Position numbers and translations under genes: made by a program
Notes under the pieces: model-generated
What the model was told of the DNA's origin: nothing
Database searches by the model: none
Seen by the model: the letters and a program-made list of their open reading frames with translations, nothing else
Source of the DNA: Candidatus Rokuibacteriota bacterium
GTDB lineage: Bacteria > Methylomirabilota > Methylomirabilia > Rokubacteriales > CSP1-6
Direction of reading: 5' to 3'
Length of the DNA: 37,362 bases
Assembly (NCBI GenBank): GCA_003221615.1
Contig: QHSQ01000114.1
Span: forward strand, 1 to 37,362
Shown here: positions 80 to 22,138 of the stretch, in pieces
Numbering within the stretch: position 1 is the first letter of the stretch
Layout of the letters: the number at the start of each line of letters is the position of its first letter

Positions 80-3000
80 CTACTTCACTCGCACGACCTG
101 GTTGCCCAGGCCGAGGCGCATCAGCTCCTGACCTTTCGCCTCCGCTTCCCCTGACGTGGCGAAGTTCCCGTGACGGAGCGCGAACATGACCGCCTCGCCC
201 GGCTGGGCGGCGACGCGCACCTGATGACCGCTCGCGCGCAGCCGCTCGGCCGTCTGGACGGCGCCGCGCAGCGGAAGGGGCAGTCCCACCTGCACGCTCA
301 AGGGCTCGCGCTCGCCGACCACGAATGCGTCGGCGAATCCCTGCTGGCGCAGCGCCGCGACGAGCGCCTGCGCGTCGCGGGCGCTCGGAATCTTCTCGAT
401 CAGCACCGCATAGAGCGCGGCGCCGGTCTGCTGACGGAAGCGCACGGTCGGGTAGCCGGCCTCGCTCAGCTGCCGCTCGACGCGCTCGGCCTCGGGCGCG
501 GTCATGAACGGGCCGAACTCGATCGCGTAACGCGCGCCGGCCGCCGGGGCGCCGCTGGGTTGGGCCGCGGGCTTGGGCGACGCAGGCGGAGTCGCCGGCG
601 CAGCGGCGGGTCGCTCGACGGCAGCCGGCGGCGCTGCGATCGGCCCCAAGCTCATCGCCGGTACGGGTGACTGCGGAACGGCTGATGGCGGCGCCGACGA
701 TTGCGGCGCCGGCGACACCGCCGGAGCCGGTGAGGGCGTGGCGGGTCGCGGCGTCGGGACCACCGTGGTCGGCTTCGACGGCGGCGCCTCGAGGCGCTGA
801 CGCAGGAGCTCCTTGGGCTTCTGGCCGCCGCCGAGCCAGCCCAGCCGCCATCCGGCGAGGCCCCCCAACGCCGCCAGGAGCGCGACGACGACGACACCCA
901 CGAAGAGACGCTTGGATTTCATCGAACGCAGCCTGGGCATCTCGAACGCGTCCGGCTCGACTGCCGGCGCGCTCGCGAAGACGTCGGCCGCGGTGGTCTC
1001 GGCACCACCGTCCGTCTCGACGACCGCCGCCTCGGCGCGGGAGCCGCGGTTCAGGAGGCCGCGCACGAATCCGCGCGCGCGCTGCAGGCGCTCCTTGCGC
1101 GCGTCGACGACGGTCTCCTCGCCGTAGTAGTGCGTGTAGTACTGCGTGTAGGCGTAGCCCGCGATCTCGGTCTTGACGTCGTTCAGCACGACGCCCCAGA
1201 CCTTGCCGCCGACGTTCTCGACGTGCACCTTGGCCCGCTTGAGCACGAGCCGGCCGACCTTGCCCGCCTGGTAGACGATGACGACACCATCGGCCTGCGA
1301 GGCGACGATCGCCGAGTCCGTGACCGGGAGGATCGGCGGCGTGTCCACGAGGATCACGTCGTACACATCGCGCACCGAGTGGAGAAAACCGGTCATCGCC
1401 GGCGTCGACAGGAGCTCCGACGGGTTGGCCGGCACCGGACCGGCCTCGATGATGTGCAGGTTGTCGAGGCCGGGCGCGGCCATGATGTCTTCCATCTCGA
1501 ACCGACCCATCAGGATATCCGCGACGGTCCGGATGCAGTCGCGCCATTGCGCGCTGCCGACGAGGATGTTCGAGAGCCCCGGCTCGCGCTCGATCCCGAA
1601 GAACCGGTGGATGCTCGGGCGCCGCATGTTCGCGCCGATGAGCAGGGTCTTCTGGCCGCTCTGCGCCATCGTCAGGGCGAGGTTGACGATCGTGGTGGTC
1701 TTGCCCTCTTGCAGGGTCGGGCTCGACACGACGAGGACCTTGCCCGAGCGCTCCATGCGCGCAAACTGGATGTTGGTGCGGAGCGTGCGGTAGGCCTCGG
1801 CCACCGGCGACTTCGGATCGAAGTGCGTGATCAGCAGCGAGTGGCTCAGCAACGCCTCGGGATCGATCTGGGCCAGCGCCGGTCGTCGCTCGAGGATTCG
1901 CTGCACGGTCTCGCGCGAATCGATGTGCGGCACGACGCCGAGCACGGGGACGCCGAGGTAGGTCTCGACGTCCTCGATGGTCCCGATCGAGGTGTCGAGG
2001 TTCTCGCGCACAAAAGCGAGCACGAGCCCGATCGCCAGCCCCAGCACGGCGCCGACCATCATCGTGTTCGTCGCGTCGCCGCCGATCGGCGCGTCCGGCT
2101 CGGTGGCCGGGCGGACGATCGAGACCTCCTCGATCTGCTCGGCCTCCTTGATGAGCGCTTCCTGGTGCTTCGTCTTCAGGAGCGCCAGGAGGTCATCGTT
2201 GGTCTTCGCCTCACGCTGCAGGCGCTGCAGGGACAGCTCCAGGGTCGGCAGCTCACGGTTTTTCTGCTGCAGCTCGCCGATCTGCCGATTCAAGAACTCC
2301 TCGCGGTTGCGGAGCATCGCGATCTGCGCCGCGACCTCCCGGCGCATCTCGGCGCGGACCTCGCGGATCCGGTCGTCGAAAGCCTGCAGGCGCGGATGGC
2401 GGTCGGTGACCTCGACCGCGAGGTTGTTGCGCTCGAGCTGGAGCTCCGAGAGCGTCCCCTGCAGCTTCTGCATCGCCGGATTCGAGGTCTCGATGAAGAC
2501 CCGGTCGGTGGGCGACGCCGCGTCGAGCGCCGCCAGGCGCTGCTGGATCGACTCGAGCTCGGTCCGCTGCTGGCGCGTCTTCTCGATATCGCCGCGGACC
2601 TGGGTGAAGACCGACATCAGCACCGACGACTCGGCGCCCGGCGCGACGATCCGGTTCGCCTCGCGGAACGCCCAGATCTCGGCTTCCGTGCGGCGCGAGC
2701 GCGCCTCGACATCCTTGAGCTGGTTCTCGATGAAGCGTCGCGCCTCGGTGACGCGCGAGTTGCGCAGCGACTTGTTGTAGTCACGGTACGCTTCGGCGGT
2801 CGTGTTGGCGAGGTCCTGGGCCTCGCGCGGCTTCGTGGAAGTCGCCGTGATCTCGAGGATGCTCGTGTTCGGCACCCGGGCCACTTTCAGCTTGCCGTTG
2901 AGCGAATCCAGCGTGCCCCAGTAGCCTTTCGCCTCGCGCGAGGCCGCCCCGGTCGGTACTTCCTTCAGGTATCCCAGGCGCTTGGCGACGTCCTCGAGGA

Positions 3001-3256
3001 TCGGATAGCTCTTGATGATGGTGACCTGGGTCTCGATCGAGTCGGCGCTCGAGTAGGAAAGGACCTCCACCAGGAGCCCCGAGAGCTGGGTCGACTGCTC
3101 GAACTTGACGGCGGCGGTCGCCTGGTAAAACGGAACCTTTCGTTGCGCGAGGCCGAAGCTCAGGAGCGCAACGAGCACCGTGCAGGCGATAATGATCATA
3201 CGCCGACGGCGCACGATCAGCCAGTAGTCGCGGAGGTTCATCTCGTACTGCGCCAC
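80..3256 (-). CDS. Wzz/tyrosine autokinase (BY-kinase) of exopolysaccharide export with C-terminal SPOR domain
   Basis: A 1058-residue polysaccharide co-polymerase fused to a bacterial tyrosine kinase. TM1 is at about 20-37, the Wzz periplasmic domain at 40-395 with a long coiled coil (170-370), and TM2 at about 398-416. The cytoplasmic kinase has Walker A SSPTLQEGKT (511-520) and Walker B ending DTPP (638-641). Its Walker A' reads LLIGANMRRP (538-547), where most BY-kinases have Asp-x-Asp. A Tyr cluster lies at 701-711. Unusually the protein continues: a third TM (about 784-802), a Pro/Ala-rich linker (822-906), and a SPOR-like domain (909-982) with a second SPOR-like copy (985-1058). Predicted topology puts the SPOR part in the periplasm, where this fold binds glycan strands of peptidoglycan. 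It is the last gene of the operon. Kinase and Wzz assignments are firm; SPOR is judged by pattern. Confidence 0.9.
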   Translation of the reverse strand: MAQYEMNLRDYWLIVRRRRMIIIACTVLVALLSFGLAQRKVPFYQATAAVKFEQSTQLSGLLVEVLSYSSADSIETQVTIIKSYPILEDVAKRLGYLKEVPTGAASREAKGYWGTLDSLNGKLKVARVPNTSILEITATSTKPREAQDLANTTAEAYRDYNKSLRNSRVTEARRFIENQLKDVEARSRRTEAEIWAFREANRIVAPGAESSVLMSVFTQVRGDIEKTRQQRTELESIQQRLAALDAASPTDRVFIETSNPAMQKLQGTLSELQLERNNLAVEVTDRHPRLQAFDDRIREVRAEMRREVAAQIAMLRNREEFLNRQIGELQQKNRELPTLELSLQRLQREAKTNDDLLALLKTKHQEALIKEAEQIEEVSIVRPATEPDAPIGGDATNTMMVGAVLGLAIGLVLAFVRENLDTSIGTIEDVETYLGVPVLGVVPHIDSRETVQRILERRPALAQIDPEALLSHSLLITHFDPKSPVAEAYRTLRTNIQFARMERSGKVLVVSSPTLQEGKTTTIVNLALTMAQSGQKTLLIGANMRRPSIHRFFGIEREPGLSNILVGSAQWRDCIRTVADILMGRFEMEDIMAAPGLDNLHIIEAGPVPANPSELLSTPAMTGFLHSVRDVYDVILVDTPPILPVTDSAIVASQADGVVIVYQAGKVGRLVLKRAKVHVENVGGKVWGVVLNDVKTEIAGYAYTQYYTHYYGEETVVDARKERLQRARGFVRGLLNRGSRAEAAVVETDGGAETTAADVFASAPAVEPDAFEMPRLRSMKSKRLFVGVVVVALLAALGGLAGWRLGWLGGGQKPKELLRQRLEAPPSKPTTVVPTPRPATPSPAPAVSPAPQSSAPPSAVPQSPVPAMSLGPIAAPPAAVERPAAAPATPPASPKPAAQPSGAPAAGARYAIEFGPFMTAPEAERVERQLSEAGYPTVRFRQQTGAALYAVLIEKIPSARDAQALVAALRQQGFADAFVVGEREPLSVQVGLPLPLRGAVQTAERLRASGHQVRVAAQPGEAVMFALRHGNFATSGEAEAKGQELMRLGLGNQVVRVK

Positions 3257-3266
3257 TAGCGGCTCC

Positions 3267-4394
3267 TCATCGCCCGCCCTCCGCGACGGCGCCGGTGATG
3301 TAGAGGAACGGCGCCTCCGCGAGGTCGGTGGATTTGGGCGACCCGAGCCGCTGGCCCTTGCCGTCGGCGACGATCTCGACGCGCGGGCGCAGCGGGTGAT
3401 GACGGTTCACCGCGGTCACACGGCCGACCTCGCCGGTGTTCAGGCGCACGAGCGTGCCGGGCGGAAACACGGAGATCTCGGAGAGCAGCGCCTTGACGAG
3501 CTGAGACGGAAACGCCTCGTGCTTGGAGCGCACGATCTCGCGGATCGCCTCGTGCGGCCGAAGCCGCGGCCGCGGCGCCGGCGGCATCGTGAGGCCGGTG
3601 TAGGTATCGACCAGCCCCAGGATCTTGGCGTCCTGGCTCACCGCGGCGCCGGGCAGGCCCTGCGGGAAGCCCTGGCCCTGCTCGCGCTCGTGGTGCTGCA
3701 GGATGGCCTCGACGAGCCCCTCGCGCGGCGACGACCAGCGGCGGATCAGCTCGACCGACAGCCGGGGGTGCGAGCGGTACTGCGCCTGCTCGTCCGTCGA
3801 CAGCGAGTCGAGGCGGCGCAGCAGGCTCTCGGGCAGCTGCCAGAGCCCGACGTCGATGAGGCTTCCCGCCATGCCGAGCTGCACCCGCCGCGGGCGGTCG
3901 TAGCCGACGCTCGCGCCGATCGTCATCGCGAGCACGCCGACACGCGCCTGGTGGAACGCGAGGTAGTCGACGCCTGCGACCGCCACCGTGTTGTTGGCGA
4001 GCCAGAAGAGATCGATCGATGCTTCCAGCGACGCCGCGCATCGCTCGATGATCTGCTCGAGCTCTGACCACGGGAATTCGTCGCCCGTGCGGATCAGCTC
4101 GCGGACGCGGGCCAGGAACAGCTGGAGCTCGGCGAAGAGCGGCTCCGCGCTCTCGGACAGTGTTGCGGGCTCGATCGGCAGCGCGTCGAGGCTCGGACCT
4201 GGCTCGACGGCGCGCGGCTCGTCGACGGCGGGCGGCGGCGTGGGCCCAGGCGCGTCCTCGACCGGCCGCGGGCGTGGCGGAGGCGGCGGCGGTGGTGGCG
4301 GGGGCGGCGACGCGCCGGGCGTCGGCGCCACCTTCGCAGCCTCCGCGGGTTTGTCGCGGGCGATGCCGCGCACGACGTCGCTCATGCGCACCAT
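3267..4394 (-). CDS. HD-GYP-like protein with degenerate HD motif and N-terminal polyproline tract
   Basis: A 375-residue protein. Residues 30-40 are eleven consecutive prolines in a disordered, Pro-rich N-terminus (about 20-75). The rest resembles an HD-GYP cyclic-di-GMP phosphodiesterase: His148 in the first helix, the HHER...GFP stretch at 234-243, and an Asp-x-Tyr-x-x-Leu-Thr segment at 263-269. The defining HDIGK position reads SLIDVGLW (178-185), so the metal-binding His is replaced by Ile. Catalysis is therefore doubtful, and a c-di-GMP-responsive or scaffold role is possible. The start overlaps the stop of the upstream ATPase gene by one base (TGATG), and a second Met lies at codon 4. 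The position inside the export operon suggests control of polysaccharide output. Confidence 0.75.
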   Translation of the reverse strand: MVRMSDVVRGIARDKPAEAAKVAPTPGASPPPPPPPPPPPRPRPVEDAPGPTPPPAVDEPRAVEPGPSLDALPIEPATLSESAEPLFAELQLFLARVRELIRTGDEFPWSELEQIIERCAASLEASIDLFWLANNTVAVAGVDYLAFHQARVGVLAMTIGASVGYDRPRRVQLGMAGSLIDVGLWQLPESLLRRLDSLSTDEQAQYRSHPRLSVELIRRWSSPREGLVEAILQHHEREQGQGFPQGLPGAAVSQDAKILGLVDTYTGLTMPPAPRPRLRPHEAIREIVRSKHEAFPSQLVKALLSEISVFPPGTLVRLNTGEVGRVTAVNRHHPLRPRVEIVADGKGQRLGSPKSTDLAEAPFLYITGAVAEGGR

Positions 4395-5200
4395 CAGGAA
4401 ACCCCGACCATGTCCTTGATCACCTCGGCGATGATCTTTTCTCCGATCTCCTTCGCGCGCTTGGAGTACCCGACCAGCAGGGCGACGTCGCAGAGGTTGT
4501 TGATCTCGCGCGGGGTGCCCCGCGTGAAATCGAAGATGAGCTTCACCGCTTCCTCGGTGAAGAGCTGGTTCGGCTGTCCGGCCATCCGCAACCGGTGGCC
4601 GATGTAGCTCGCGGTGTGCGTGTAGTCGAGCGTGTTGAGGTGATACCGGAGGCTGATCCGCTGGTCGAGATGCTTGAGACGGCGGACCTTCACGCCGAGC
4701 TCGGTCGAGCCGATGAGGAGCAACGTCACCAGGAACCGGTCGTCGGTCTGGAAGTTCATCAAGAGCCGCAGCTCCTCGAAGACCGAGTCGTCCTCGATGA
4801 GCTGGGCTTCGTCGACGATGACGACGCTGTCCCGCCCGGCCTGATAGTTCCGGAAGAACAGATCGTTCAGGAGATGCAGCAGCTCGGGCTTGCGCGTCTC
4901 CTGGGTCTCGACGCCCAGCTGGTAGAGCACCTCACGCAGGAAATCGACGGGGGTCCAGCTCGGATTCGTGAGCAGCCCGATCTCGTAGCGCTCGGCCTCG
5001 AGACGCTGGATGAGCGCGCGCGACAGCGTGGTCTTTCCGCAGCCGTACTCGCCGGTGAGCATCCCGCAGCCCTTACGGTGGCGCACCGTGTAGACCAGCC
5101 GGACCAGCGCCTCCTCGTGCTCGGGCGACAGGTAGAAGAATTTCGGGTTCGGCGAGTTGTCGAACGGCGGTTCGCTGAGCTCCCAGTACGATTCGTACAT
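4394..5200 (-). CDS. GspA/ExeA-like AAA ATPase of the exopolysaccharide operon
   Basis: A 268-residue AAA ATPase of the type found in general-secretion (GspA/ExeA) and exosortase-associated polysaccharide loci. It starts with the family-typical Tyr-x-x-Phe...Pro-Phe segment. Walker A is GEYGCGKTT, Walker B is VVIVDEAQ, a sensor 1-like segment reads LLLIGSTEL, and a sensor 2-like region is GTPREINNL near the C-terminus. Length and motif order match the family. The start lies three bases after the stop of the SLBB gene, so the genes are co-transcribed. In related loci the ATPase is thought to energise assembly or secretion; its exact target is unknown. No exosortase gene is present in this window. 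Confidence 0.88.
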   Translation of the reverse strand: MYESYWELSEPPFDNSPNPKFFYLSPEHEEALVRLVYTVRHRKGCGMLTGEYGCGKTTLSRALIQRLEAERYEIGLLTNPSWTPVDFLREVLYQLGVETQETRKPELLHLLNDLFFRNYQAGRDSVVIVDEAQLIEDDSVFEELRLLMNFQTDDRFLVTLLLIGSTELGVKVRRLKHLDQRISLRYHLNTLDYTHTASYIGHRLRMAGQPNQLFTEEAVKLIFDFTRGTPREINNLCDVALLVGYSKRAKEIGEKIIAEVIKDMVGVS

Positions 5201-5203
5201 GGG

Positions 5204-6757
5204 TCAGTTGCCGGGCGCGCGGCCGTTGAAGATGAAGTAGAGGCCCGTGTAGGCCGTGACCAGCGACGCGACCGCCGTCAGGATCGTGACGTAGTCCTGC
5301 CACCACTTGACCGCGACCTCGGGCACCGTCACCACGGCGCCGGGCTCGAGCGGCGGCGCGTCGGCCATCGCGTAGGTCCGGCCGTTTCGGAAGGTCACCA
5401 GGGTGTGGACCAGCCTGGCGCGGTTCGTGGGACCGCCCGCCAGCGCCACGTACTCGCGCGGCGTCAGGTCCGGCCGGAAGTCGTGGGCGCCCGGCGTCTT
5501 GACCTCGCCGAGGATGAAGATCCTGTCCTCGACGACCGGCAGCATGAAGACGTCGCCGTTCTGCAGCACGATGTTCGGCGCATCGTCCTTCTCGACCAGC
5601 ATGCGATAAAGATCGATCGGGATCCGTTGCTTGGGGCCGGTCGCCCCGGTCCGGTCGACCAGCGCCAGACGGAGATCCGCGTACGAGGCGGCGCCGCCCG
5701 CCCGGTCGAGGACGTCGCGCACGCGCTCGCCCTGCGCCAGCTCGAAGCGCTGGAGGATCGTCGATTTGCCGGCGACCGTCGTCTTCGTGCTCTCGGCGGT
5801 GCCGTTGAACGCGCCGCGGACCTCGACCAGGTCCTGCAGCGAGGAGATCGCCGGGACGTAGATCGCGTCGCCCGGTCGCAGGATGACGTCGGCCGGCGGC
5901 GTGAGCGCCGAGCGCAGATCGAGCGCCACTGCTTCCTTGCGGTCGCCGGAGCCCACGCGCGTGAGCCGAGCATCGCCGAGCGCCGCGGCGTCGCTCAGGC
6001 CGCCAACCATGTCGAGCAGCTCGCGCAAGGACGGCGTCGATCCGATCTCGTACTGGCCGGGCCGGCGCACCGCGCCCGCGAGCGTGACGGAGCCCGAGCG
6101 CGGCGGCACGTGGATCCGCAGACCCTCCTCGACGAACGGGTTCTGCGCGAGATCCCCGCGCAGCTGAAAGGCGAGCAGGTCGACCTGACGCTCGCCGCTG
6201 CGTCGCGCGAGCGTGATGTTGCGCATGCTACCGCGCGGGGTGATGCCGCCGGCCTCGAGGATGACGTCGTACACGCGGCGGGTCGCGGCGGTCTGCACGG
6301 TGCCCGGGCGGTCGACTTCCCCCGACACGGTCACCTCGAACGTGCGCGGCGCCACGACGGTGAGGGTCGCGTCGGCGAATCGAAACACGTCGCGCGCGCG
6401 CGCGGCCACCTTGCGATGCGCCTCGAGCAACGTCAGCCCGGCGACCGGAATGGCGCCGAGCGGTGGCACATTGATCGCGCCCTCGAGGTCGACGACCGCT
6501 TGCTGGCGGATCACTTCGAGACGGCCGGCGATCTGAACGTCCAGAAGGTCTCCGGGGGCGAGGCGATAGTCCGGCCCAGGGGTCACTCCCCGCGGTCCCG
6601 AGGGTGCCGGCGGCGGGATCGGGGTCGACCGCATAGCGGGCGCAGGCGGTTGTGGTTGCTGAGGAGTGGTCGGAATTTGAGCAAACCCCGGTCCGGGCGC
6701 CAGTAGTGACACCACCAGAAGCAGGCTGACCAACCTGCGCAGACTACCGGCCTTCAT
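5204..6757 (-). CDS. SLBB-domain polysaccharide export outer-membrane protein (Wza-like)
   Basis: A 517-residue exported protein. A signal peptide covers residues 1-26 (basic start, hydrophobic core, then Gly-Phe-Ala-Gln), followed by a Pro-rich linker. A Poly_export domain at about 64-150 begins with YRLAPGDLLDVQI. It is followed by several SLBB-type beta-grasp repeats whose motifs read like VSGEVDRPG, LAGAVRRPG and LGEVKTPG. A hydrophobic C-terminal helix (about 489-510) resembles the helix by which Wza spans the outer membrane. It would form the outer-membrane channel for the polymer handled by the kinase encoded downstream. It is the first gene of the minus-strand operon, with a promoter at 6793-6822. 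The family call is very secure; the polymer is unknown. Confidence 0.92.
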   Translation of the reverse strand: MKAGSLRRLVSLLLVVSLLAPGPGFAQIPTTPQQPQPPAPAMRSTPIPPPAPSGPRGVTPGPDYRLAPGDLLDVQIAGRLEVIRQQAVVDLEGAINVPPLGAIPVAGLTLLEAHRKVAARARDVFRFADATLTVVAPRTFEVTVSGEVDRPGTVQTAATRRVYDVILEAGGITPRGSMRNITLARRSGERQVDLLAFQLRGDLAQNPFVEEGLRIHVPPRSGSVTLAGAVRRPGQYEIGSTPSLRELLDMVGGLSDAAALGDARLTRVGSGDRKEAVALDLRSALTPPADVILRPGDAIYVPAISSLQDLVEVRGAFNGTAESTKTTVAGKSTILQRFELAQGERVRDVLDRAGGAASYADLRLALVDRTGATGPKQRIPIDLYRMLVEKDDAPNIVLQNGDVFMLPVVEDRIFILGEVKTPGAHDFRPDLTPREYVALAGGPTNRARLVHTLVTFRNGRTYAMADAPPLEPGAVVTVPEVAVKWWQDYVTILTAVASLVTAYTGLYFIFNGRAPGN

Positions 6758-15326: not shown

Positions 15327-15601
15327 TCGGCGGCGTCACCACCGCGCTCGTCTGCGATCAGCTCAAGAGCGGGGTCGTCATCCCGTGCCGCTATGAGCCC
15401 GGGCTCCAGCGCACCTACGAGGAATCTCGCTCAGCACTACGGGACGGTGATTCTGCCTGCGCGGCCGGCGAAAGCGCGCGACAAGGCGAAGGTCGAAGTG
15501 GCCGTCCAGATCGTGGAGCGGTGGATCCTCGCTCGCCTCCGCCACGAGGTCTTCTCCTCGCTCGCCGCGCTCAACGGGCGCATCGCCGAGCTGCTCGCGG
15601 G
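15327..15601 (+). pseudogene. IS21-family transposase (IstA) remnant, frameshifted and truncated
   Basis: Two adjoining frames read like the C-terminal half of IstA. The first gives a segment with [16 protein letters not shown], then after a one-base shift near 15426 a second continues with [20 protein letters not shown] and [10 protein letters not shown]. These are diagnostic of IS21 transposases. Both ends are missing and no IstB partner follows. Bases 15229-15326 hold no recognisable gene. The remnant marks the left edge of the carbamoyltransferase cassette and suggests that past transposition shaped this junction. Confidence 0.85.
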
Positions 15602-15727
15602 TGTTGCTGACCTGTGCGGACCGCGGTCTCGAGCAGCGGTACGTCCTTGCGACTCATCGTGAGCGTCTCCGATCGGCTCATGGGATGTGCCTGCATGGTA
15701 CGATCCGCGATGCGAGGTGAGCACGCG

Positions 15728-15900
15728 ATGAAGGTCGTCAGGCCGTCGCCATCCGGAAGGTCATTCGCTTCCGCGCGCACGGGGGCGCATCGCATATCCC
15801 GTTGATCAAGACCCGGGACATCGCCGAGATCCTCGCCGAGCGTCGACCGATCGCTCCCTCGCCCGAGTTTCTCCCACAGGCTCCCAGCGGGACGCGATGA
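15728..15900 (+). pseudogene. Small gene upstream of the carbamoyltransferase, apparently with a one-base deletion
   Basis: ATG 15728 has a ribosome-site-like GAGGTGA before it. The coding-looking frame is reached by a shift of one base near 15737 and then runs about 50 codons (IRKVIRFRAHGG ... IKTRDIAEILAERRP) to TGA 15898-15900. The last four bases, ATGA, overlap the carbamoyltransferase start, a typical coupling arrangement. The roughly 57-residue product is basic and not recognised. Either the gene is broken or the sequence has a one-base error. It could also be chance; the ATGA overlap is the main support. Confidence 0.35.
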
Positions 15901-17633
15901 TCGTTCTCGGCTACAGCGGGCTTGACGCGTCGGTTCGTTACGCGAGGCGCGACCCCGACTTGCTCCCCGGCGAGGAGCGCATCGTCCAGGGCCTGGACAG
16001 CGCCGCGGCGATTCTCGCCGATGGGCGCATCGTCGCCGCCGCCGCCGAGGAGCGCTTCGGCACCGAGAAGCACACCAACGCGTTCCCGCAGGAAGCCATC
16101 CAGTACTGCCTGAACGAGGCCGGCATCAGCATGGGGGACGTCGACATGGTCGCGCACGGCTTCGACTACGGCCGCCATGCGACGACGATCGGCGTGGTCA
16201 GCCCCGCGCTCTACGCGGAGGTGTACAGCCCGATCCGGCAAGTCGAGCTCTGGCGTGACCGCTTCGACCTGCCTCGGGGAAAATTCGTCAGCGTCCAGCA
16301 CCATCTCGCCCACGCGGCCAGCGCGTATTTCACCTCGCCGTTCGCCGACGCGCTCTGCGTCGTGTGCGACGGCATGGGCGAGATCGACGCGATGACCATC
16401 TATGCGGTGCGAGACGGTCGGTTCGAGGTCCTCGACACCCACCCGATCAGGCACTCGATCGGCATCCTCTACGGGCTCGTCACCAGGCATCTCGGTTTCA
16501 AGTTCAACGCCGACGAGTACAAGGTGATGGGCCTGGCGCCTTACGGGAACCCCGAGGTGTACCGGGGGTTCTTCGAGAGCCTCGTCGACCTGCATCCGGA
16601 CGGCCAGTACGCGCTCCACCTGGAGCGGCTCTCGCCCGAGCGGGCGCCCTATTACCGCCAGGTCCTCGCCGCTTTCGAGAAGCTGCTGCCGCGGCCCGAA
16701 GGGACCGAGATGCTCCCCCAGGCGCATTGCGACTTCGCCGCCGCTGCGCAGGAGTGCCTGGAACGGGTCCTGTTCCATGTCGTCACGCACTGGCGCCAGA
16801 CGACCGGGCTCCGGACGCTCTGCATGGCAGGCGGCGTCGCGCTGAACTGCACCTTCAACGGCAAGCTCGCCCGGCACGGGATCTTCGACGAGATCTACGT
16901 GCAGCCCGCCGCCGCCGATGACGGCACGGCCGTCGGGGCGGCGCTGGCCATCCTCCACCAGAGGGGCGAGGATCGGTCCCCGGAGATCGTCCAGGCGCTC
17001 CCCTTCTACGGGCCGGCCTATTCGAAGGAGCAGATGCTGGCGGCCCTGCGCGGCCAGGATGACCTCGACCGGACCGACCTCGGCAGCGCGGAGAACGCCG
17101 CGGAGGACGCGGCGGGCGCGCTGGCTGCGGACCAGATCATCGCGTGGTTCCAAGGCCGGATGGAGTACGGGCCGCGGGCGCTCGGCAACCGCTCGATCCT
17201 CGCCAATCCGCTCGTCCCCGACATCAAGGAGCGGCTCAACCGGGTCATCAAGCTGCGCGAGGGCTTCCGGCCGTTCGCGCCGGCCGTCGCCGCCGAGCGT
17301 GCGCCCGAGTACTTCGATTTCACCCCGTCGTCGATGTTCGAGTTCATGCTGGCGACTTGCCCGGTGCGCGAGGAGTGGCGGCATCGACTCCCCGGCATCA
17401 CCCATGTCGACGGCTCGGCTCGCATGCAGACGGTCGACCCTTCGCGCAATGGGCTGTTCCACCGGCTCATCACCGCGTTCGGCCGGCGGACCGGCGTCTA
17501 CTCGGTCGTCAACACGTCGTTCAACCTGCGCGGCCAGCCGATGATCGTCTCACCCGCGATTGCCATCGAGACGTTCCGCAAGGTGGCGATCGACCGCCTC
17601 TACCTGGGCTCGGTGCGGGTGTGCAAGCGGTGA
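15897..17633 (+). CDS. O-carbamoyltransferase (NodU/CmcH/TobZ family)
   Basis: A 578-residue protein of normal family length. These enzymes use carbamoyl phosphate and ATP to make carbamoyl-adenylate and then transfer the carbamoyl group to a hydroxyl of a sugar or natural product. Seen here are the N-terminal ASKHA-type fold with Glu51-Glu52, the metal-binding HHLAHAASAY (135-144), the AGGVALNC motif in the middle, and the C-terminal Carbam_trans_C signature GRMEYGPRALGNRSILA. All key residues look intact. It opens a plus-strand cassette with an LLM oxygenase, adenylation enzyme, ACP and GNAT protein, which points to tailoring of a small molecule or glycan. The acceptor is unknown. Confidence 0.93.
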   Translation: MIVLGYSGLDASVRYARRDPDLLPGEERIVQGLDSAAAILADGRIVAAAAEERFGTEKHTNAFPQEAIQYCLNEAGISMGDVDMVAHGFDYGRHATTIGVVSPALYAEVYSPIRQVELWRDRFDLPRGKFVSVQHHLAHAASAYFTSPFADALCVVCDGMGEIDAMTIYAVRDGRFEVLDTHPIRHSIGILYGLVTRHLGFKFNADEYKVMGLAPYGNPEVYRGFFESLVDLHPDGQYALHLERLSPERAPYYRQVLAAFEKLLPRPEGTEMLPQAHCDFAAAAQECLERVLFHVVTHWRQTTGLRTLCMAGGVALNCTFNGKLARHGIFDEIYVQPAAADDGTAVGAALAILHQRGEDRSPEIVQALPFYGPAYSKEQMLAALRGQDDLDRTDLGSAENAAEDAAGALAADQIIAWFQGRMEYGPRALGNRSILANPLVPDIKERLNRVIKLREGFRPFAPAVAAERAPEYFDFTPSSMFEFMLATCPVREEWRHRLPGITHVDGSARMQTVDPSRNGLFHRLITAFGRRTGVYSVVNTSFNLRGQPMIVSPAIAIETFRKVAIDRLYLGSVRVCKR

Positions 17634-17906
17634 GCAAGAACGGGAACCGCTTTCCTGGCCAGGTGACAGCGCTCCCGTAGAAAACCGGAAGGGGTGTCCG
17701 CCCCACCTTTCAGAGCTCCGGGGATCGTTTGCGCTGCGACCAACCCCGGGTCTCCCCACCCTGAGGCATACTCCTCACCACGATCAGGCACCTACCTGAT
17801 TGTTTGGTCTCGCCAAGGGTACTACCCCTAGATCAAGGGGCCACGAGTACCGCCCACGCCTGGCGTTGCACCATGCCGTGACGGCGACGAGGTCGAGGAG
17901 GCCGTG
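17634..17906 (+). other. Intergenic stretch with a small inverted repeat
   Basis: No gene is visible. CCCCT (17825-17829) and AGGGG (17836-17840) form a short inverted repeat just downstream of GGGTACTA (17817-17824), about 70 bases upstream of the LLM gene. It could be an operator, but nothing else supports this. The gap separates the carbamoyltransferase from the rest of the cassette, so the latter may have its own promoter. Confidence 0.25.
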
Positions 17907-18938
17907 ATGGTCGAGGACATGCTTGGCGGACCAGTCGAGGTCTTCTCCACCTGCCCGCCGATCCGCGGCGAGGGCGGGGCGTACCTGGAAAAGGTCGCAG
18001 ATGCGGCCCGTTGGAGCGAGCAAGCCGGTTGCAGGGGGATGCTCGTCTATGCGGACAATTCGCAGCTGGACGCGTGGCTGGTGTCCCAGACCATCGTCGA
18101 GAACACGCAGGCCCTCTCTCCGCTCGTCGCCGTCCAGCCCGCCTACATGCACCCATACGCGGTGGCCAAGATGGTGACATCCCTCGGGTATCTCTACCGG
18201 AGGCGAGTCTACCTGAACATGGTTGCGGGAGGATTCAAGAACGACTTGGCGGCCTTGAACGACACGACCCCCCACGACAAGCGCTATCAGCGCCTGGTCG
18301 AGTACACCACGATCATCAAGCGGCTCCTGGCGGGCGCGTCGGCGGTCACCCGCCGGGGGGAATTCTACGCGGTCGACAAGCTGCGGTTGACACCGCCGCT
18401 GGCCGCGGATCTCTACCCCGGCATCTTCGTGTCCGGGTCCTCTGACGCCGGGCTGGCGGCGGCGCGCGCGATCGGCGCCACCGCCATTCATTACCCGAAG
18501 CCGGCGGAGGCGTACCAGGCTGCGCCTCTCGTCGGGGCCGGCGAGTCCGGCGTCCGGGTGGGGATCATCGCGCGCGAGCGGGAGGAGGACGCCTGGCGCA
18601 CGGCCCACGCGCGGTTCCCGGAGGACCGAGGCGGCCAACTCACTCATCAGCTCGCCATGAAGGTGTCGGATTCGGTCTGGCACGGGCAGCTGTCCGCGCT
18701 CGGCGAGGCGAGCGGACCATACTGGCTCGTCCCCTTCCAGAACTACAAGACCATGTGCCCGTACCTGGTCGGGAGCTACGAGCAGGTCGCGGCCGAGCTC
18801 GCGGGATACCTCGCGGCCGGCCATCGCACGTTCATCCTGGACGTGCCGCCGGACCGGGAGGAACTGAGGCACGTCGGGATGGCCTTCGCACAGGTCCGGA
18901 AGGAGGCGAGATGCCAGAACTACTCCAGGAGTGGGTGA
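17907..18938 (+). CDS. LLM-class flavin-dependent monooxygenase (SsuD-like)
   Basis: A luciferase-like TIM-barrel protein of 343 residues that uses reduced flavin and oxygen. Family features include VFSTCPP near the N-terminus, the central GYLYRRRVYLNMVAGGFK typical of alkanesulfonate monooxygenase relatives, and PGIFVSGSSDAGLAAARAIG near the middle. The ATG at 17907 is preferred because GAGGAGG (17895-17901) sits five bases before it; GTG 17904 is the alternative. The last 28 bases overlap the adenylation gene. Luciferase-like monooxygenases of this type occur in nonribosomal-peptide clusters, where they hydroxylate carrier-bound substrates. Such a role fits the context but is inferred. Confidence 0.88.
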   Translation: MVEDMLGGPVEVFSTCPPIRGEGGAYLEKVADAARWSEQAGCRGMLVYADNSQLDAWLVSQTIVENTQALSPLVAVQPAYMHPYAVAKMVTSLGYLYRRRVYLNMVAGGFKNDLAALNDTTPHDKRYQRLVEYTTIIKRLLAGASAVTRRGEFYAVDKLRLTPPLAADLYPGIFVSGSSDAGLAAARAIGATAIHYPKPAEAYQAAPLVGAGESGVRVGIIAREREEDAWRTAHARFPEDRGGQLTHQLAMKVSDSVWHGQLSALGEASGPYWLVPFQNYKTMCPYLVGSYEQVAAELAGYLAAGHRTFILDVPPDREELRHVGMAFAQVRKEARCQNYSRSG

Positions 18939-20521
18939 CGCTCCAGGCGGAGAGACAGCCGGGGGTGGCGGTCGTCGGGAACAACGAGCGGCTGACCTAT
19001 GCGCGGCTGGAGGAGCGGTCGAATCAACTCGCGCGACTCCTGAAAGAGGCGGGGTGCAAGTCGGGGGACCGGGTCTGCCTCTTGATGCCCAAGTCGCCGA
19101 CGGCGATCGTCAGCCTCCTCGGCATCTACAAGGCGGATTGCCTCTACGTTCCCCTCGATCCGGCCGGCCCGGCGGCCCGCCTGGCGCAGATCATCCAGTC
19201 TTGTGGTTCCAGATGGATCCTGGCGGCCGGCCCGGTGAGCGGCGTCCTCGGTGCGCTCGTGGACGACGAGCGATTCCGCGGGTCCATCTCCGTGGGCTGG
19301 ATGGGCGACGGGGCGGCGCACGGCAAGTTCAGAACCGACTTCACGCGCGATGACGTGGAGAGCTATCCGAGCGCGGTGCTTCACTACGACCATGGCGGCG
19401 GCGACCCGGCGCACCTCCTGTTCACCTCGGGATCGACCGGCACCCCCAAAGGGGTGACCATCACGCACGCCAGCGTGATCCGGTTCGTGCAGTGGTCCAC
19501 GAAGTACTTCGGGATGGCGGCGAGCGACCGGGTGTCGGGGCATTCTCCCCTGCACTTCGACCTGTCCATCTTCGACATCTTCGGCGCCTTCGCGGTCGGG
19601 GCCGAGCTGCATCTGGTGCCGCCGGAGCTGAACGTGCTGCCGCACAAGCTCGCGGAGTTCATCCGAAGCGCGGAGTTGACGCAGTGGTTCTCGGTGCCCT
19701 CCGTGCTCACGTACATGGCGAAGTTCGACGTCGTGCGCGTCGACGATTTCCCGTCCTTGAAGCGCCTCCTGTGGTGCGGCGAGGTCTTCTCGACGCCGGC
19801 GCTCATCCACTGGATGCGCCGGCTGCCCCACGTGACGTTCACGAACCTGTACGGGCCCACGGAGGCCACCATCGCGAGCAGCTACTACACGGTCGCGCGC
19901 TGTCCGGAGGACGAGCGGGCCCCGGTCCCCATCGGGCGGGCGTGCGACGGCGAGGAGCTGCTCGTGCTCGATGAAGGGCTGCGCCCGGTCCGGCCGGGCG
20001 AGGCCGGGGAGCTGCACATCGCCGGGGCGGGCCTGAGCCCGGGGTACTGGGGTGATCCGGAGAAGACGCGCGCGGCGTTTCCCCGCCGTCCGGGCAGCGC
20101 TGACCCGGGGGACCGGCTCTACAAGACGGGCGACGCAGCGAAGGTCGGGGCTGACGGGCTCGTGTATTTCCTCGGGCGGGCTGACTCCCAGATCAAAAGC
20201 CGCGGCTATCGGATCGAGCTGGAGGAGATCGAGGCCGCGCTGAACGCGCTCCCGGACGTGGGGGAGTGCGCGGTGGTGGCGGTCCAGACCGATGGCTTCG
20301 AGGGCGCGGTGGTCTGTTGCGCGTACGTGCCGGCCTCAGGCGCCGACGGCAGTCCGCTGGCGGTGAGGCAGGCGTTGAGCGCCGCGCTGCCGACCTACAT
20401 GCTGCCGGCGCGCTGGCGGGTCCTGGACCGGCTTCCGCGGAACGCCAACGGCAAGATCGACCGGCGCCACGTGACGGAGGCGTTCGCTAGCCATGGAGGT
20501 CCAGCCGGTGGCGTGGGGTAG
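18911..20521 (+). CDS. Stand-alone amino-acid adenylation enzyme (NRPS A-domain)
   Basis: A 536-residue ANL-superfamily enzyme that activates an acid as an adenylate and loads it on a carrier protein. Core motifs are clear: A3 FTSGSTGTPKG (171-181), A4 FDLSIFD (216-222), A5 NLYGPTEAT (312-320), A7 YKTGDAA (404-410), A8 GRADSQIKSRGYRIELEE (422-439) and A10 NGKIDRR (513-519) with catalytic Lys515. Asp217 at the amine-binding position favours an amino-acid substrate; which one cannot be read by eye. The start at 18911 has AGGAGG four bases upstream. The free-standing form followed by a free carrier protein is typical of aminoacyl-ACP pathways rather than large synthetases. Confidence 0.93.
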   Translation: MPELLQEWVTLQAERQPGVAVVGNNERLTYARLEERSNQLARLLKEAGCKSGDRVCLLMPKSPTAIVSLLGIYKADCLYVPLDPAGPAARLAQIIQSCGSRWILAAGPVSGVLGALVDDERFRGSISVGWMGDGAAHGKFRTDFTRDDVESYPSAVLHYDHGGGDPAHLLFTSGSTGTPKGVTITHASVIRFVQWSTKYFGMAASDRVSGHSPLHFDLSIFDIFGAFAVGAELHLVPPELNVLPHKLAEFIRSAELTQWFSVPSVLTYMAKFDVVRVDDFPSLKRLLWCGEVFSTPALIHWMRRLPHVTFTNLYGPTEATIASSYYTVARCPEDERAPVPIGRACDGEELLVLDEGLRPVRPGEAGELHIAGAGLSPGYWGDPEKTRAAFPRRPGSADPGDRLYKTGDAAKVGADGLVYFLGRADSQIKSRGYRIELEEIEAALNALPDVGECAVVAVQTDGFEGAVVCCAYVPASGADGSPLAVRQALSAALPTYMLPARWRVLDRLPRNANGKIDRRHVTEAFASHGGPAGGVG

Positions 20522-20658
20522 CACCACCCGACACTCGATTCGGAGCGGCTCGGCTTCGGGGCGATCGACCGGCGCGGAGGACGTCGCGCCATGGATGGCC
20601 ACCCGTACGATCGCCTCCGGTCCGGCCTCTCGGCGTTGGAGCGCAAAGGACATCCGCG

Positions 20659-20967
20659 ATGGCCGAACCTAGCGCGTTGGAAGCCCGGATCCGTCAGGTC
20701 TTCCGGGACAAGCTGAAGCTGGACGTGCCGTCCGTGGACACGGATCTGTTCGAGACCGCCGCGCTCGATTCGATGGTGTTCGTCGATCTCCTGTTGCACC
20801 TGGAGCGCGAGTTCGGGGTCACGGCGGCGCTCGAAGACATCGAGTTCGACCATTTCAGGTCCATCGAGCGGATCGCGGAGTTCGTGGCCAACCGCGTCGC
20901 CAGGGCCGAGGACACGGCCCCCCGGCGCGGTCGCAACCAGTCCATCGCGGACGCCCCGAGGGAGTGA
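20659..20967 (+). CDS. Acyl/peptidyl carrier protein
   Basis: A 102-residue carrier protein. The phosphopantetheine attachment site is Ser38 in AALDSMVFVDLL. The surrounding four-helix pattern, the acidic helix II and an N-terminal helix starting at residue 5 are typical. The tail after about residue 85 is an Arg/Pro-rich extension. It is the likely acceptor for the adenylated amino acid produced by the preceding gene. No phosphopantetheinyl transferase is nearby, so a genomic one must modify it. The 137-base gap before it holds no other gene. Confidence 0.9.
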   Translation: MAEPSALEARIRQVFRDKLKLDVPSVDTDLFETAALDSMVFVDLLLHLEREFGVTAALEDIEFDHFRSIERIAEFVANRVARAEDTAPRRGRNQSIADAPRE

Positions 20968-21007
20968 CCTGATACGCCTTCGGGCGGCGGATGGAGACGA
21001 GCCGGGC

Positions 21008-22138
21008 ATGAGGACAGCCGGACGGATCACGAGACGCGGCGGTTACGTGCGGCCCTTCGTCGAGGCGGACATCCCGCAGGTCGCGGAGCTGCATCGGCGG
21101 GTGTTTCAGACCGGCGAAGCGCCTTCGGCGGAGCTCGAGCGGCGGTATCGCGCGTACTTCCGGGGAATTTTCCTGGACAATCCTTGGTACGACGAGGAGG
21201 TATCGCCGCTCGTGTACGAGGACGCCGACGGGTCGATCGCCGGGTTCCTTGGCGTCATGCCGCGGCGGATGTCGATCCGCGGCCGGCCGATCCAGGCTGC
21301 AGTGAGCTCGCAGTTCATCGTGGAGCCGGGCCGTCGGTCCACGATGGCGGCGGTCCATCTGATGAAGACGTTCATGTCTGGACCGCAAGACGTGTCGATC
21401 GCGGACGAGGCGAACGGCCTGTCACGCAAGCTGTGGGAGAGCCTCGGGGGCGCCACGGCGTTGCTCCACAGCATCCACTGGGCGCGCCTTCTGCGGCCCG
21501 CCCAGTTCGGGCTCCTGAGGATGGGGAGGGGGACACGCCTCGGGACCGCATCCGTGCTCAGGCCGGTGTGCCGCCTGGTGGACGGCGTCGCCGCCCATCT
21601 GCCCCGGAGCCCGTTCCGGCACTCGGTTACATCGTCCAGTGAGGACCTGGACGTGGAGACGCTCCTCGCCTGCTTGTCGGAGTCTTCGGGTCGGCCGGCC
21701 CTCAGACCGGAGTACGACGCGCGCTCGTTGCGGTGGCTTCTGGGGTTTCTGGTCCCTGCCAGAGGCGAGGGATCGCTGCACAAGGCGCTCGTGCGGGACG
21801 CTGCCGGGCAGGTGCTGGGGTGGTACCTGTACTATGCCGGTCCAGCGGGCCTCGGGGAAGCGGTCCACATCGGGGCACGGCACGAGTCGATGAAGGCGGT
21901 GCTGGAGCACCTGTTCCAGGACGCCTGGCGCCGGGACGTCGTCGCGCTCTCGGGGCGACTGGAGCCGCGGTTCACAGCGGGTTTCGCGCAGACCTACTGC
22001 CTGTTCCATCCTCGCCTCTGCTGGATGCTGGTCCATTCCCGCGACGCGGAGGTGCTGCAGGCTATCCATAGTGGGGACGCCATGCTCACGCGTCTGGAAG
22101 GCGAGTGGTGCATGCGATTTCAGATGGAGTCCCGGTGA
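21008..22138 (+). CDS. GNAT-like acyltransferase ending the ACP cassette
   Basis: A 376-residue protein. The N-terminal part (about 14-130) follows the GNAT N-acetyltransferase pattern: an initial strand VRPFVEADIPQVAELHRRVF, a substrate strand region ending in GFLGVMPRR, and a pyrophosphate-loop-like VEPGRRSTMAAVHLM. The C-terminal half has a second domain with a strand-rich segment (about 255-320) that could be another degenerate GNAT fold, as in two-domain GNAT proteins. No FemAB signature is seen. In this cassette it may move an acyl or aminoacyl group from the ACP to an acceptor. Acyl donor and acceptor are unknown. Confidence 0.75.
   Translation: MRTAGRITRRGGYVRPFVEADIPQVAELHRRVFQTGEAPSAELERRYRAYFRGIFLDNPWYDEEVSPLVYEDADGSIAGFLGVMPRRMSIRGRPIQAAVSSQFIVEPGRRSTMAAVHLMKTFMSGPQDVSIADEANGLSRKLWESLGGATALLHSIHWARLLRPAQFGLLRMGRGTRLGTASVLRPVCRLVDGVAAHLPRSPFRHSVTSSSEDLDVETLLACLSESSGRPALRPEYDARSLRWLLGFLVPARGEGSLHKALVRDAAGQVLGWYLYYAGPAGLGEAVHIGARHESMKAVLEHLFQDAWRRDVVALSGRLEPRFTAGFAQTYCLFHPRLCWMLVHSRDAEVLQAIHSGDAMLTRLEGEWCMRFQMESR

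What the first reader, a model, noticed from the sequence alone, without database searches (positions are those of the whole stretch)
15897..22138. Compact carbamoyltransferase - LLM oxygenase - adenylation enzyme - ACP - GNAT cassette
Five plus-strand genes combine a carbamoyltransferase with a free amino-acid adenylation enzyme, a free carrier protein, a flavin monooxygenase and a GNAT-like protein. There is no condensation, ketosynthase or thioesterase domain. A plausible scheme is: amino acid loaded on the ACP, oxidised while bound, moved to an acceptor by the GNAT protein, and carbamoylated. Motifs are seen directly; the scheme is inferred. I recall no described pathway with exactly this set.
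Basis: partly seen in the sequence, partly recalled or inferred. Interest (0 to 1): 0.78.

Follow-up and report, generated by a model that had tools for sequence, protein, structure and literature searches.

The report
Amino-acid loading and decorating gene cassette
Five neighbouring bacterial genes look like a small kit that loads an amino acid on a carrier protein, oxidises it, caps it and attaches it to something, probably a surface sugar chain in a good part of its relatives; versions of the kit occur in many bacterial phyla and I found no description of it.

Summary
Observation confirmed: carbamoyltransferase (CT), luciferase-like monooxygenase (LLM), free adenylation enzyme (A), carrier protein (ACP) and a large GNAT protein lie at 15897-22138 of a Rokubacteria-type MAG contig. 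The set recurs. An LLM scan confirmed 134 relatives; I analysed the best 80 plus 5 loci. LLM-A-ACP occurs in 60 of 64 with enough DNA, in ten named phyla. All five families co-occur in 14 of 85, eight of them Bradyrhizobium. Cassette CTs form one clade apart from 29 other CTs. 28 of 85 loci lie near exopolysaccharide genes. Relatives often carry a small GNAT, formyl- or methyltransferase, rarely two, frequently between A and ACP; the window keeps only a stump of that small GNAT. Best reading: an amino acid is loaded on ACP, oxidised by LLM, capped (acetyl, formyl, methyl or carbamoyl) and handed by the tandem-GNAT protein to an amine, often an amino sugar of a surface glycan. Substrate, oxidation site and acceptor are inferred. 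It works like lincosamide synthetase but is not a member: a new variant of a known kind.

The parts
15897..17633 (+). carbamoyltransferase (TobZ/GdmN/NovN superfamily), 578 aa
   Evidence: Pfam Carbam_trans_N and _C; nearest solved GdmN 2.2e-112, then a novobiocin carbamoyltransferase and TobZ; in a clade of 22 cassette CT rows, SH-aLRT 96.6
17904..18938 (+). luciferase-like FMNH2-type monooxygenase, 344 aa
   Evidence: Bac_luciferase; nearest solved SsuD; 56-68% identical to six relatives in the family
18911..20521 (+). free-standing amino-acid adenylation enzyme, 536 aa; pocket code read as DLFFLCLIAK
   Evidence: TIGR01733 over cut-off; same code in 36 of 77 aligned A rows, incomplete rows counted; ATG 18911 follows a GGAGG
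20543..20656 (+). stump of the small GNAT (C-terminal ~38 aa) that lies between A and ACP in relatives
   Evidence: tblastn of 23 cassette sGNATs against 20301-21100: best C-terminal match E 8.3e-6, 38 aa, residues 156-193 of 195; many other sGNATs hit the same place
20659..20967 (+). free acyl/peptidyl carrier protein, 102 aa
   Evidence: PP-binding; LDS motif in the translation
21008..22138 (+). large tandem-GNAT protein, 376 aa, proposed acyltransferase
   Evidence: Acetyltransf_9; model pLDDT 89.8, pTM 0.87; fold like N-myristoyltransferases and Eis-like tandem GNATs

Best explanation
The cassette is a small carrier-protein pathway. A adenylates a small, rather hydrophobic alpha-amino acid and loads it on the ACP. 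The LLM, with reduced flavin from a flavin reductase elsewhere in the genome, oxygenates the amino-acyl-ACP. A cap is then put on the amine or on the new N-OH or C-OH: in relatives acetyl (small GNAT), formyl or methyl, here carbamoyl by the CT. The tandem-GNAT protein moves the finished acyl group from the ACP to an amine acceptor; in the relatives inside exopolysaccharide clusters most likely an amino sugar of the surface glycan; in the window and in Bradyrhizobium, where no glycan genes directly adjoin, a glycan made elsewhere or a small molecule. Shown here: the families, gene order, conservation, recurrent association, predicted tandem-GNAT fold, the sGNAT stump. Inferred: every chemical step, the substrate, the acceptor, and that CT replaces the lost sGNAT.
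For: LLM-A-ACP core in 60 of 64 loci with at least 5 kb downstream; A directly after LLM in 74 of 79. Core loci come from ten named phyla: Acidobacteriota, Pseudomonadota, Gemmatimonadota, Planctomycetota, Nitrospirota, Myxococcota, Rokuibacteriota, Verrucomicrobiota, Latescibacterota, Actinomycetota. Tandem GNAT or its distant kin c10 in 42 of 85; their profiles match at prob 95, E 3.9e-8. Flavin reductase (one member tested: PF01613, 5.9e-31) within 6.5 kb in 6 of 85 loci; two PF01613 genes elsewhere in the own genome. sGNAT, FT and MT: one double in 64 loci against 5.7 expected, 27 of 10,000 shuffles as low, relatedness not controlled. Genes between A and ACP are of these cap families in 28 of 70 loci. 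Cassette CT clade. Wzz, Wza, BY-kinase, NusG, Wzy or Ugd within 9.5 kb in 28 of 85 loci (one member of each checked with Pfam), an undercount since glycosyltransferases were not counted (e.g. L070).
Against: No chemistry tested. In the window the export genes (80-6757) are 9 kb away with unrelated genes between; the Bradyrhizobium cassettes adjoin no glycan genes in what I read; 57 of 85 loci have no export marker, so a glycan acceptor is not general. CT co-occurs with sGNAT in three Gemmatimonadota loci (L078, L085, L087), against a simple one-cap rule; 36 of 70 loci have no gene between A and ACP and 11 of 63 show no cap enzyme at all. The only locus with CT between A and ACP (L038) has both A and CT truncated. 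Small GNAT, FT and MT could act on the sugar rather than on the amino acid. GNAT against its near-copy in G005: 10 nonsynonymous, 7 synonymous changes, ratio 0.50, so constraint on the window's lineage is not strongly shown.
Confidence: 0.5

Rival explanations
1. The cassette makes a small diffusible molecule (a carbamoylated, oxidised amino-acid amide), not a glycan decoration. The GNAT joins the aminoacyl group to a free amine and the product is secreted or used as signal, antibiotic or metal ligand.
For: In eight Bradyrhizobium loci CT, LLM, A, ACP and c10 stand together beside transporter and other unrelated genes, without glycan genes in what I read; L110, read in full, also has a methyltransferase. 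LLM relatives at 43-52% on plasmids (7 records, 4 looked at) lie beside free A and PPTase genes, in two with a free carrier, or beside NRPS genes, the make-up of small natural-product clusters.
Against: 28 of 85 loci have export, polymerase or sugar-dehydrogenase genes of exopolysaccharide type within 9.5 kb; no exporter of its own in the window cassette.
Confidence: 0.3
2. CT and GNAT act on the sugar alone (carbamoylated and acetylated sugar), and LLM-A-ACP is a separate branch that merely lies in the same hot spot for surface genes.
For: CTs are common in this family: 50 of 57 genomes have one at E<=1e-40, and close LLMs are in only 7 of these 57; big GNATs occur in exopolysaccharide-type stretches without LLM (L015, L019).
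Against: Cassette CTs of six phyla form one clade apart from 29 non-cassette CTs; CT and GNAT also accompany the core where no glycan genes adjoin (Bradyrhizobium, window); in G018 the other big GNAT also lies beside an ACP-like ORF and an acyl ligase (L012).
Confidence: 0.12
3. The window copy is a decaying fragment of an exopolysaccharide locus, moved by a transposon and no longer functional.
For: sGNAT reduced to a stump; an IstA-like ORF at 15393-15662 just upstream (recalled likeness, no Pfam hit); GNAT pN/pS 0.50 on 17 changes.
Against: All five ORFs are full length against their families with high third-position GC and RBS-like stretches before LLM and A; the same five-gene order occurs in Solirubrobacteraceae L096.
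Confidence: 0.08

Closest known systems
Lincosamide synthetase (LmbC, LmbN-CP and LmbD, E, F, V; PMC4351081, abstract and passages read)
   Same: Free A domain and a carrier protein activate an amino acid that dedicated non-NRPS enzymes join to an amino sugar by an amide bond.
   Different: The further subunits are LmbD/E/F/V, not a tandem GNAT; no LLM or carbamoyltransferase among the synthetase subunits named there; makes an antibiotic, not linked to polysaccharide.
Dlt system (D-alanylation of teichoic acid; recalled)
   Same: A enzyme and ACP resemble DltA and DltC: free ligase plus free carrier for decorating a surface polymer.
   Different: A scores 283.3 and 294 bits against DltA cut-offs of 559.85 and 476; no DltB or DltD seen in the window; adds LLM, CT, GNAT.
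Palmerolide PKS-NRPS (PMC8739492, passages read)
   Same: An LLM predicted to alpha-hydroxylate a carrier-bound chain, and a carbamoyltransferase that caps a hydroxyl, in one pathway.
   Different: LLM is a domain of a PKS module; large PKS-NRPS; no free A-ACP-GNAT set.
SsuD alkanesulfonate monooxygenase
   Same: Nearest solved relative of the LLM; two-component FMNH2 logic.
   Different: NCBIfam score 104 and 102 bits against cut-offs 510 and 518; of the recalled sulfonate-site residues only R226 is kept, C54, H228 and R297 are not.
GdmN / NovN / TobZ carbamoyltransferases
   Same: Same two-domain enzyme, full-length match.
   Different: Those act on antibiotics (recalled); here a distinct clade travels with LLM-A-ACP.

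Membership tests
Lincosamide synthetase | free A domain plus carrier protein | tested here: met
Lincosamide synthetase | LmbD, LmbE, LmbF and LmbV subunits | tested here: not met
   the other three genes are CT, LLM and GNAT by Pfam; subunit list from PMC4351081; no sequence search with the Lmb proteins was made
Dlt system | DltA equivalog score | tested here: not met
   283.3 against 559.85, and 294 against 476 bits
Dlt system | DltB and DltD partners | tested here: not met
   not among the 27 window ORFs scanned with Pfam; the rest of the genome was not searched
Modular NRPS/PKS | condensation or ketosynthase and thioesterase domains, large cluster | tested here: not met
   none among the 27 window ORFs scanned; KASIII in 4 of 85 relatives
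Alkanesulfonate monooxygenase SsuD | equivalog score and sulfonate-site residues | tested here: not met
   102.3 of 518.2 bits; C54, H228, R297 replaced (residue roles recalled)
Bacterial luciferase-like monooxygenases | Pfam Bac_luciferase above cut-off | tested here: met
   98.7 against 27.9 bits
Carbam_trans carbamoyltransferases | both Pfam domains above cut-off | tested here: met
   211.5 against 27 and 201.3 against 24 bits
Tandem-GNAT N-acyltransferases (NMT, Eis-like) | two GNAT folds in one chain | tested here: met
   predicted model and Foldseek, E 1.1e-13 to 2e-12, TM 0.48-0.55, rmsd 5-8 A: a likeness of fold, about 10% identity
Tandem-GNAT N-acyltransferases (NMT, Eis-like) | acyl donor is a CoA thioester | not testable with these tools
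   loop reads RRSTMA here and RGLTG in some kin, not the recalled R-x-x-G-x-G/A

The most novel reading that the evidence does not exclude
A widespread, undescribed decoration system: amino-acyl-ACP is N-hydroxylated by a dedicated LLM and then N- or O-capped by a swappable acetyl-, formyl-, methyl- or carbamoyltransferase, as in hydroxamate siderophores but on a carrier-bound alpha-amine; the tandem GNAT attaches the unit to amino sugars, giving surface polysaccharides (and in Bradyrhizobium small molecules) that carry oxidised, possibly metal-binding, aminoacyl groups. The cap slot evolves by gene exchange on a constant core.
Probability: 0.12. Interest if true: 0.85.

Novelty: new variant of a known kind. 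Interest (0 to 1): 0.6.

Why it matters
If true, it would be a general way in which soil and groundwater bacteria, most of them known only from MAGs, make surface glycans or small molecules with modified amino acids, using a one-module NRPS logic with exchangeable caps. It gives a monooxygenase clade that may act on carrier-bound amino acids, and a concrete, testable set of five small enzymes. It also warns that such A-ACP pairs in genome mining need not mean a peptide product.

Tried and rejected
Carrier-bound proline oxidation (pyrrole type) was considered because two plasmid relatives of the LLM lie beside acyl-CoA dehydrogenases that match prolyl-PCP dehydrogenase RedW weakly (161 and 174 bits, cut-off 650); the A codes there differ from the cassette's, so the substrate stays open. 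Sulfonate chemistry was set aside (SsuD residues not kept). A natural LLM-A fusion suspected from long ORFs was rejected: no ORF holds both domains at over 100 bits. The model of the Bradyrhizobium GNAT-like protein was too poor to use (pLDDT 50.1); its kinship rests on the profile comparison, and it has no Pfam hit. The scan of viral contigs with the GNAT found nothing. Ten paper searches (one search listed 15 of 42 papers) listed no paper that, by title and start of abstract, deals with this gene set; the library lacks most subscription journals, so this is weak evidence of novelty.

Limits: relatives were chosen by LLM similarity (best 80 of 134 kept), so the fraction with a core says nothing of LLMs at large. 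Genes were called by a simple script, so partner counts are lower bounds. Names of genes in relatives (Wzz, Wza, Wzy, BY-kinase, Ugd, KASIII and the like) were given by eye and carried over by similarity; one member of each was checked with Pfam (the Wzz example falls just under its cut-off). The pocket-code positions were read against recalled GrsA positions. Trees are quick ones with SH-aLRT only. The CT tree has non-cassette CTs only from the window's own family. The 60 core loci include damaged ones (L013, stops in LLM; L038, A truncated).
Full report
What is there. The window is one whole contig of a 7.24 Mb MAG (96.5% complete, 8.6% contamination). Five plus-strand genes lie at 15897-22138: CT, LLM, A, ACP, GNAT. 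A begins at ATG 18911 and overlaps LLM; the gaps are 270 bp (CT-LLM), 137 bp (A-ACP) and 40 bp (ACP-GNAT). To the left lies a polysaccharide export set (Wzz/kinase 80-3256, AAA 4394-5200, Wza-like 5204-6757), then unrelated genes; to the right a GH5 enzyme.

Conservation in the family. The GNAT is found in 7 of 58 other genomes (8 of 59 with the own) and a close LLM in 6 of 56 others (7 of 57 with the own). Reading those stretches: G002 and G003 have LLM-A-small GNAT-ACP-KASIII-3-hydroxyacyl-CoA dehydrogenase, with big GNAT, acyl ligase and aminotransferase, beside Wzz and a polymerase-like protein, in G003 with further export genes (Pfam of the G002 genes); G018 has LLM-A-small GNAT-ACP-big GNAT in such a cluster, with two in-frame stops in its LLM; G010 has LLM-A-methyltransferase-ACP among glycan genes; G032 has LLM at a contig end after export genes; G003's second copy and G067 have LLM-A-ACP with a formyltransferase, outside glycan clusters. 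G005 has a 96% identical partial GNAT at a contig end, and no LLM at E<=1e-60.

Wider distribution. A scan with an LLM alignment confirmed 134 relatives and kept 80. With five further loci (window, G010, G003 second copy, G067, G018) 85 were analysed. A follows LLM directly in 74 of 79 with at least 2.3 kb; exceptions L041, L042, L052, L068, L114, of which L068 and L114 have A upstream. ACP is found in 60 of 64 with at least 5 kb; missing in L041, L052, L084, L105. Partner counts in 85: GNAT 32, c10 10, sGNAT 25, FT 15, MT 7, CT 23, KASIII 4, flavin reductase 6. Export, polymerase or Ugd markers within 9.5 kb: 28. All five families: 15, or 14 without L043, whose CT falls outside the cassette clade; eight of the 14 are Bradyrhizobium, three Acidobacteriota, one Nitrospirota, one Actinomycetota, and the window. 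L096 (Solirubrobacteraceae) has the window's exact order CT-LLM-A-ACP-GNAT. L038 (Nitrospirota), the nearest by LLM (69%), has truncated A and CT, so it is a damaged copy.

Is CT part of it? CTs are common in the family (50 of 57 genomes). In a tree of 24 cassette CT rows and 29 CTs of the family that lie on other contigs than the LLMs, 22 cassette rows (21 loci) from six phyla (Rokubacteria, Acidobacteriota, Nitrospirota, Gemmatimonadota, Actinomycetota, Pseudomonadota) form one side of a branch (SH-aLRT 96.6); L043 and L084 fall outside. On the LLM tree presence of clade CT needs at least 8 changes. So CT has joined or left repeatedly, yet is nearly always of one kind: a functional partner.

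The cap slot. Small GNAT, formyltransferase and methyltransferase are nearly exclusive: one double (L043) in 64, 5.7 expected, 27 of 10,000 shuffles as low; related loci inflate this. Of 70 loci with A and ACP placed, the gene between them is sGNAT alone in 17 and with others in four, FT in 4, MT in 2, CT in 1 (L038); 36 have no room for a gene and 6 a gap without a labelled gene. In the window this gap holds a stump of the sGNAT C-terminus (20543-20656, best E 8.3e-6 of 23 queries), and no intact relative of it was found in the own genome (an empty answer without a positive control). The simplest story is that the window's cassette descends from an LLM-A-sGNAT-ACP-GNAT form and that CT now supplies the cap. 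Against a strict rule: three Gemmatimonadota loci have CT and sGNAT, and 11 of 63 loci have no cap gene seen.

The enzymes. A: pocket code DLFFLCLIAK in 36 of 77 aligned rows, incomplete ones counted; variants mostly at the third position. Among NCBIfam models DltA ligases are high on its list but below their cut-offs; the amino acid cannot be named. LLM: SsuD-like, sulfonate residues replaced except R226 (roles recalled). Of seven plasmid relatives at 43-52% identity four were looked at: two lie near a free A, carrier and PPTase, one near a free A and PPTase, one beside an NRPS, which supports action on carrier-bound substrates. GNAT: confident model, tandem GNAT fold like N-myristoyltransferase and Eis-type proteins, from an alignment with 25 relatives. 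Its CoA loop is not canonical, which leaves room for an ACP donor; inference.

Mechanism and novelty. The scheme in Best explanation follows. It resembles lincosamide synthetase in logic, Dlt in parts, and palmerolide in pairing LLM with CT, but does not meet the membership tests made. Ten searches of the held library listed no paper on it by title or start of abstract. I rate it a new variant of a known kind.

Noticed in passing
window 80-6757, minus strand: Polysaccharide export set: Wzz-BY-kinase-SPOR protein, HD-domain protein, AAA ATPase, Wza-like SLBB protein, running towards the contig end.
   Followed up: partly
window 15393-15662: Short ORF that looks to me like the end of an IS21 IstA transposase (recalled; no Pfam hit), just upstream of the cassette.
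   Followed up: no
L013:15432-16445 (G018): LLM of an otherwise complete cassette has two in-frame stops: pseudogene or assembly error.
   Followed up: partly
L016 and L020/L021 (G002, G003): Cassette version with KASIII, 3-hydroxyacyl-CoA dehydrogenase, acyl ligase and aminotransferase: perhaps the aminoacyl-ACP is extended.
   Followed up: partly
L145, L146, L147 (Tritonibacter, Rhizobium, Gemmobacter plasmids): Small unexplained clusters: LLM relative with free A and PPTase, in part with carrier, P450, acyl-CoA dehydrogenase, FAD enzyme and an ABC exporter.
   Followed up: partly
L034:1956-4511 (G067): One open frame seems to join an ECF-sigma-like protein (by eye) to the LLM; fusion or sequence error not resolved.
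   Followed up: no
L084:2979-7052 in the script's stretch coordinates: A 1357-aa ORF with an A domain upstream of the LLM of an acidobacterial locus: possibly NRPS-like, not examined.
   Followed up: no
L012, L015, L019: Big GNATs also occur in exopolysaccharide-type stretches apart from an LLM, beside an ACP-like ORF and acyl ligase (L012) or asparagine-synthase-like genes (L015, L019; by eye).
   Followed up: partly
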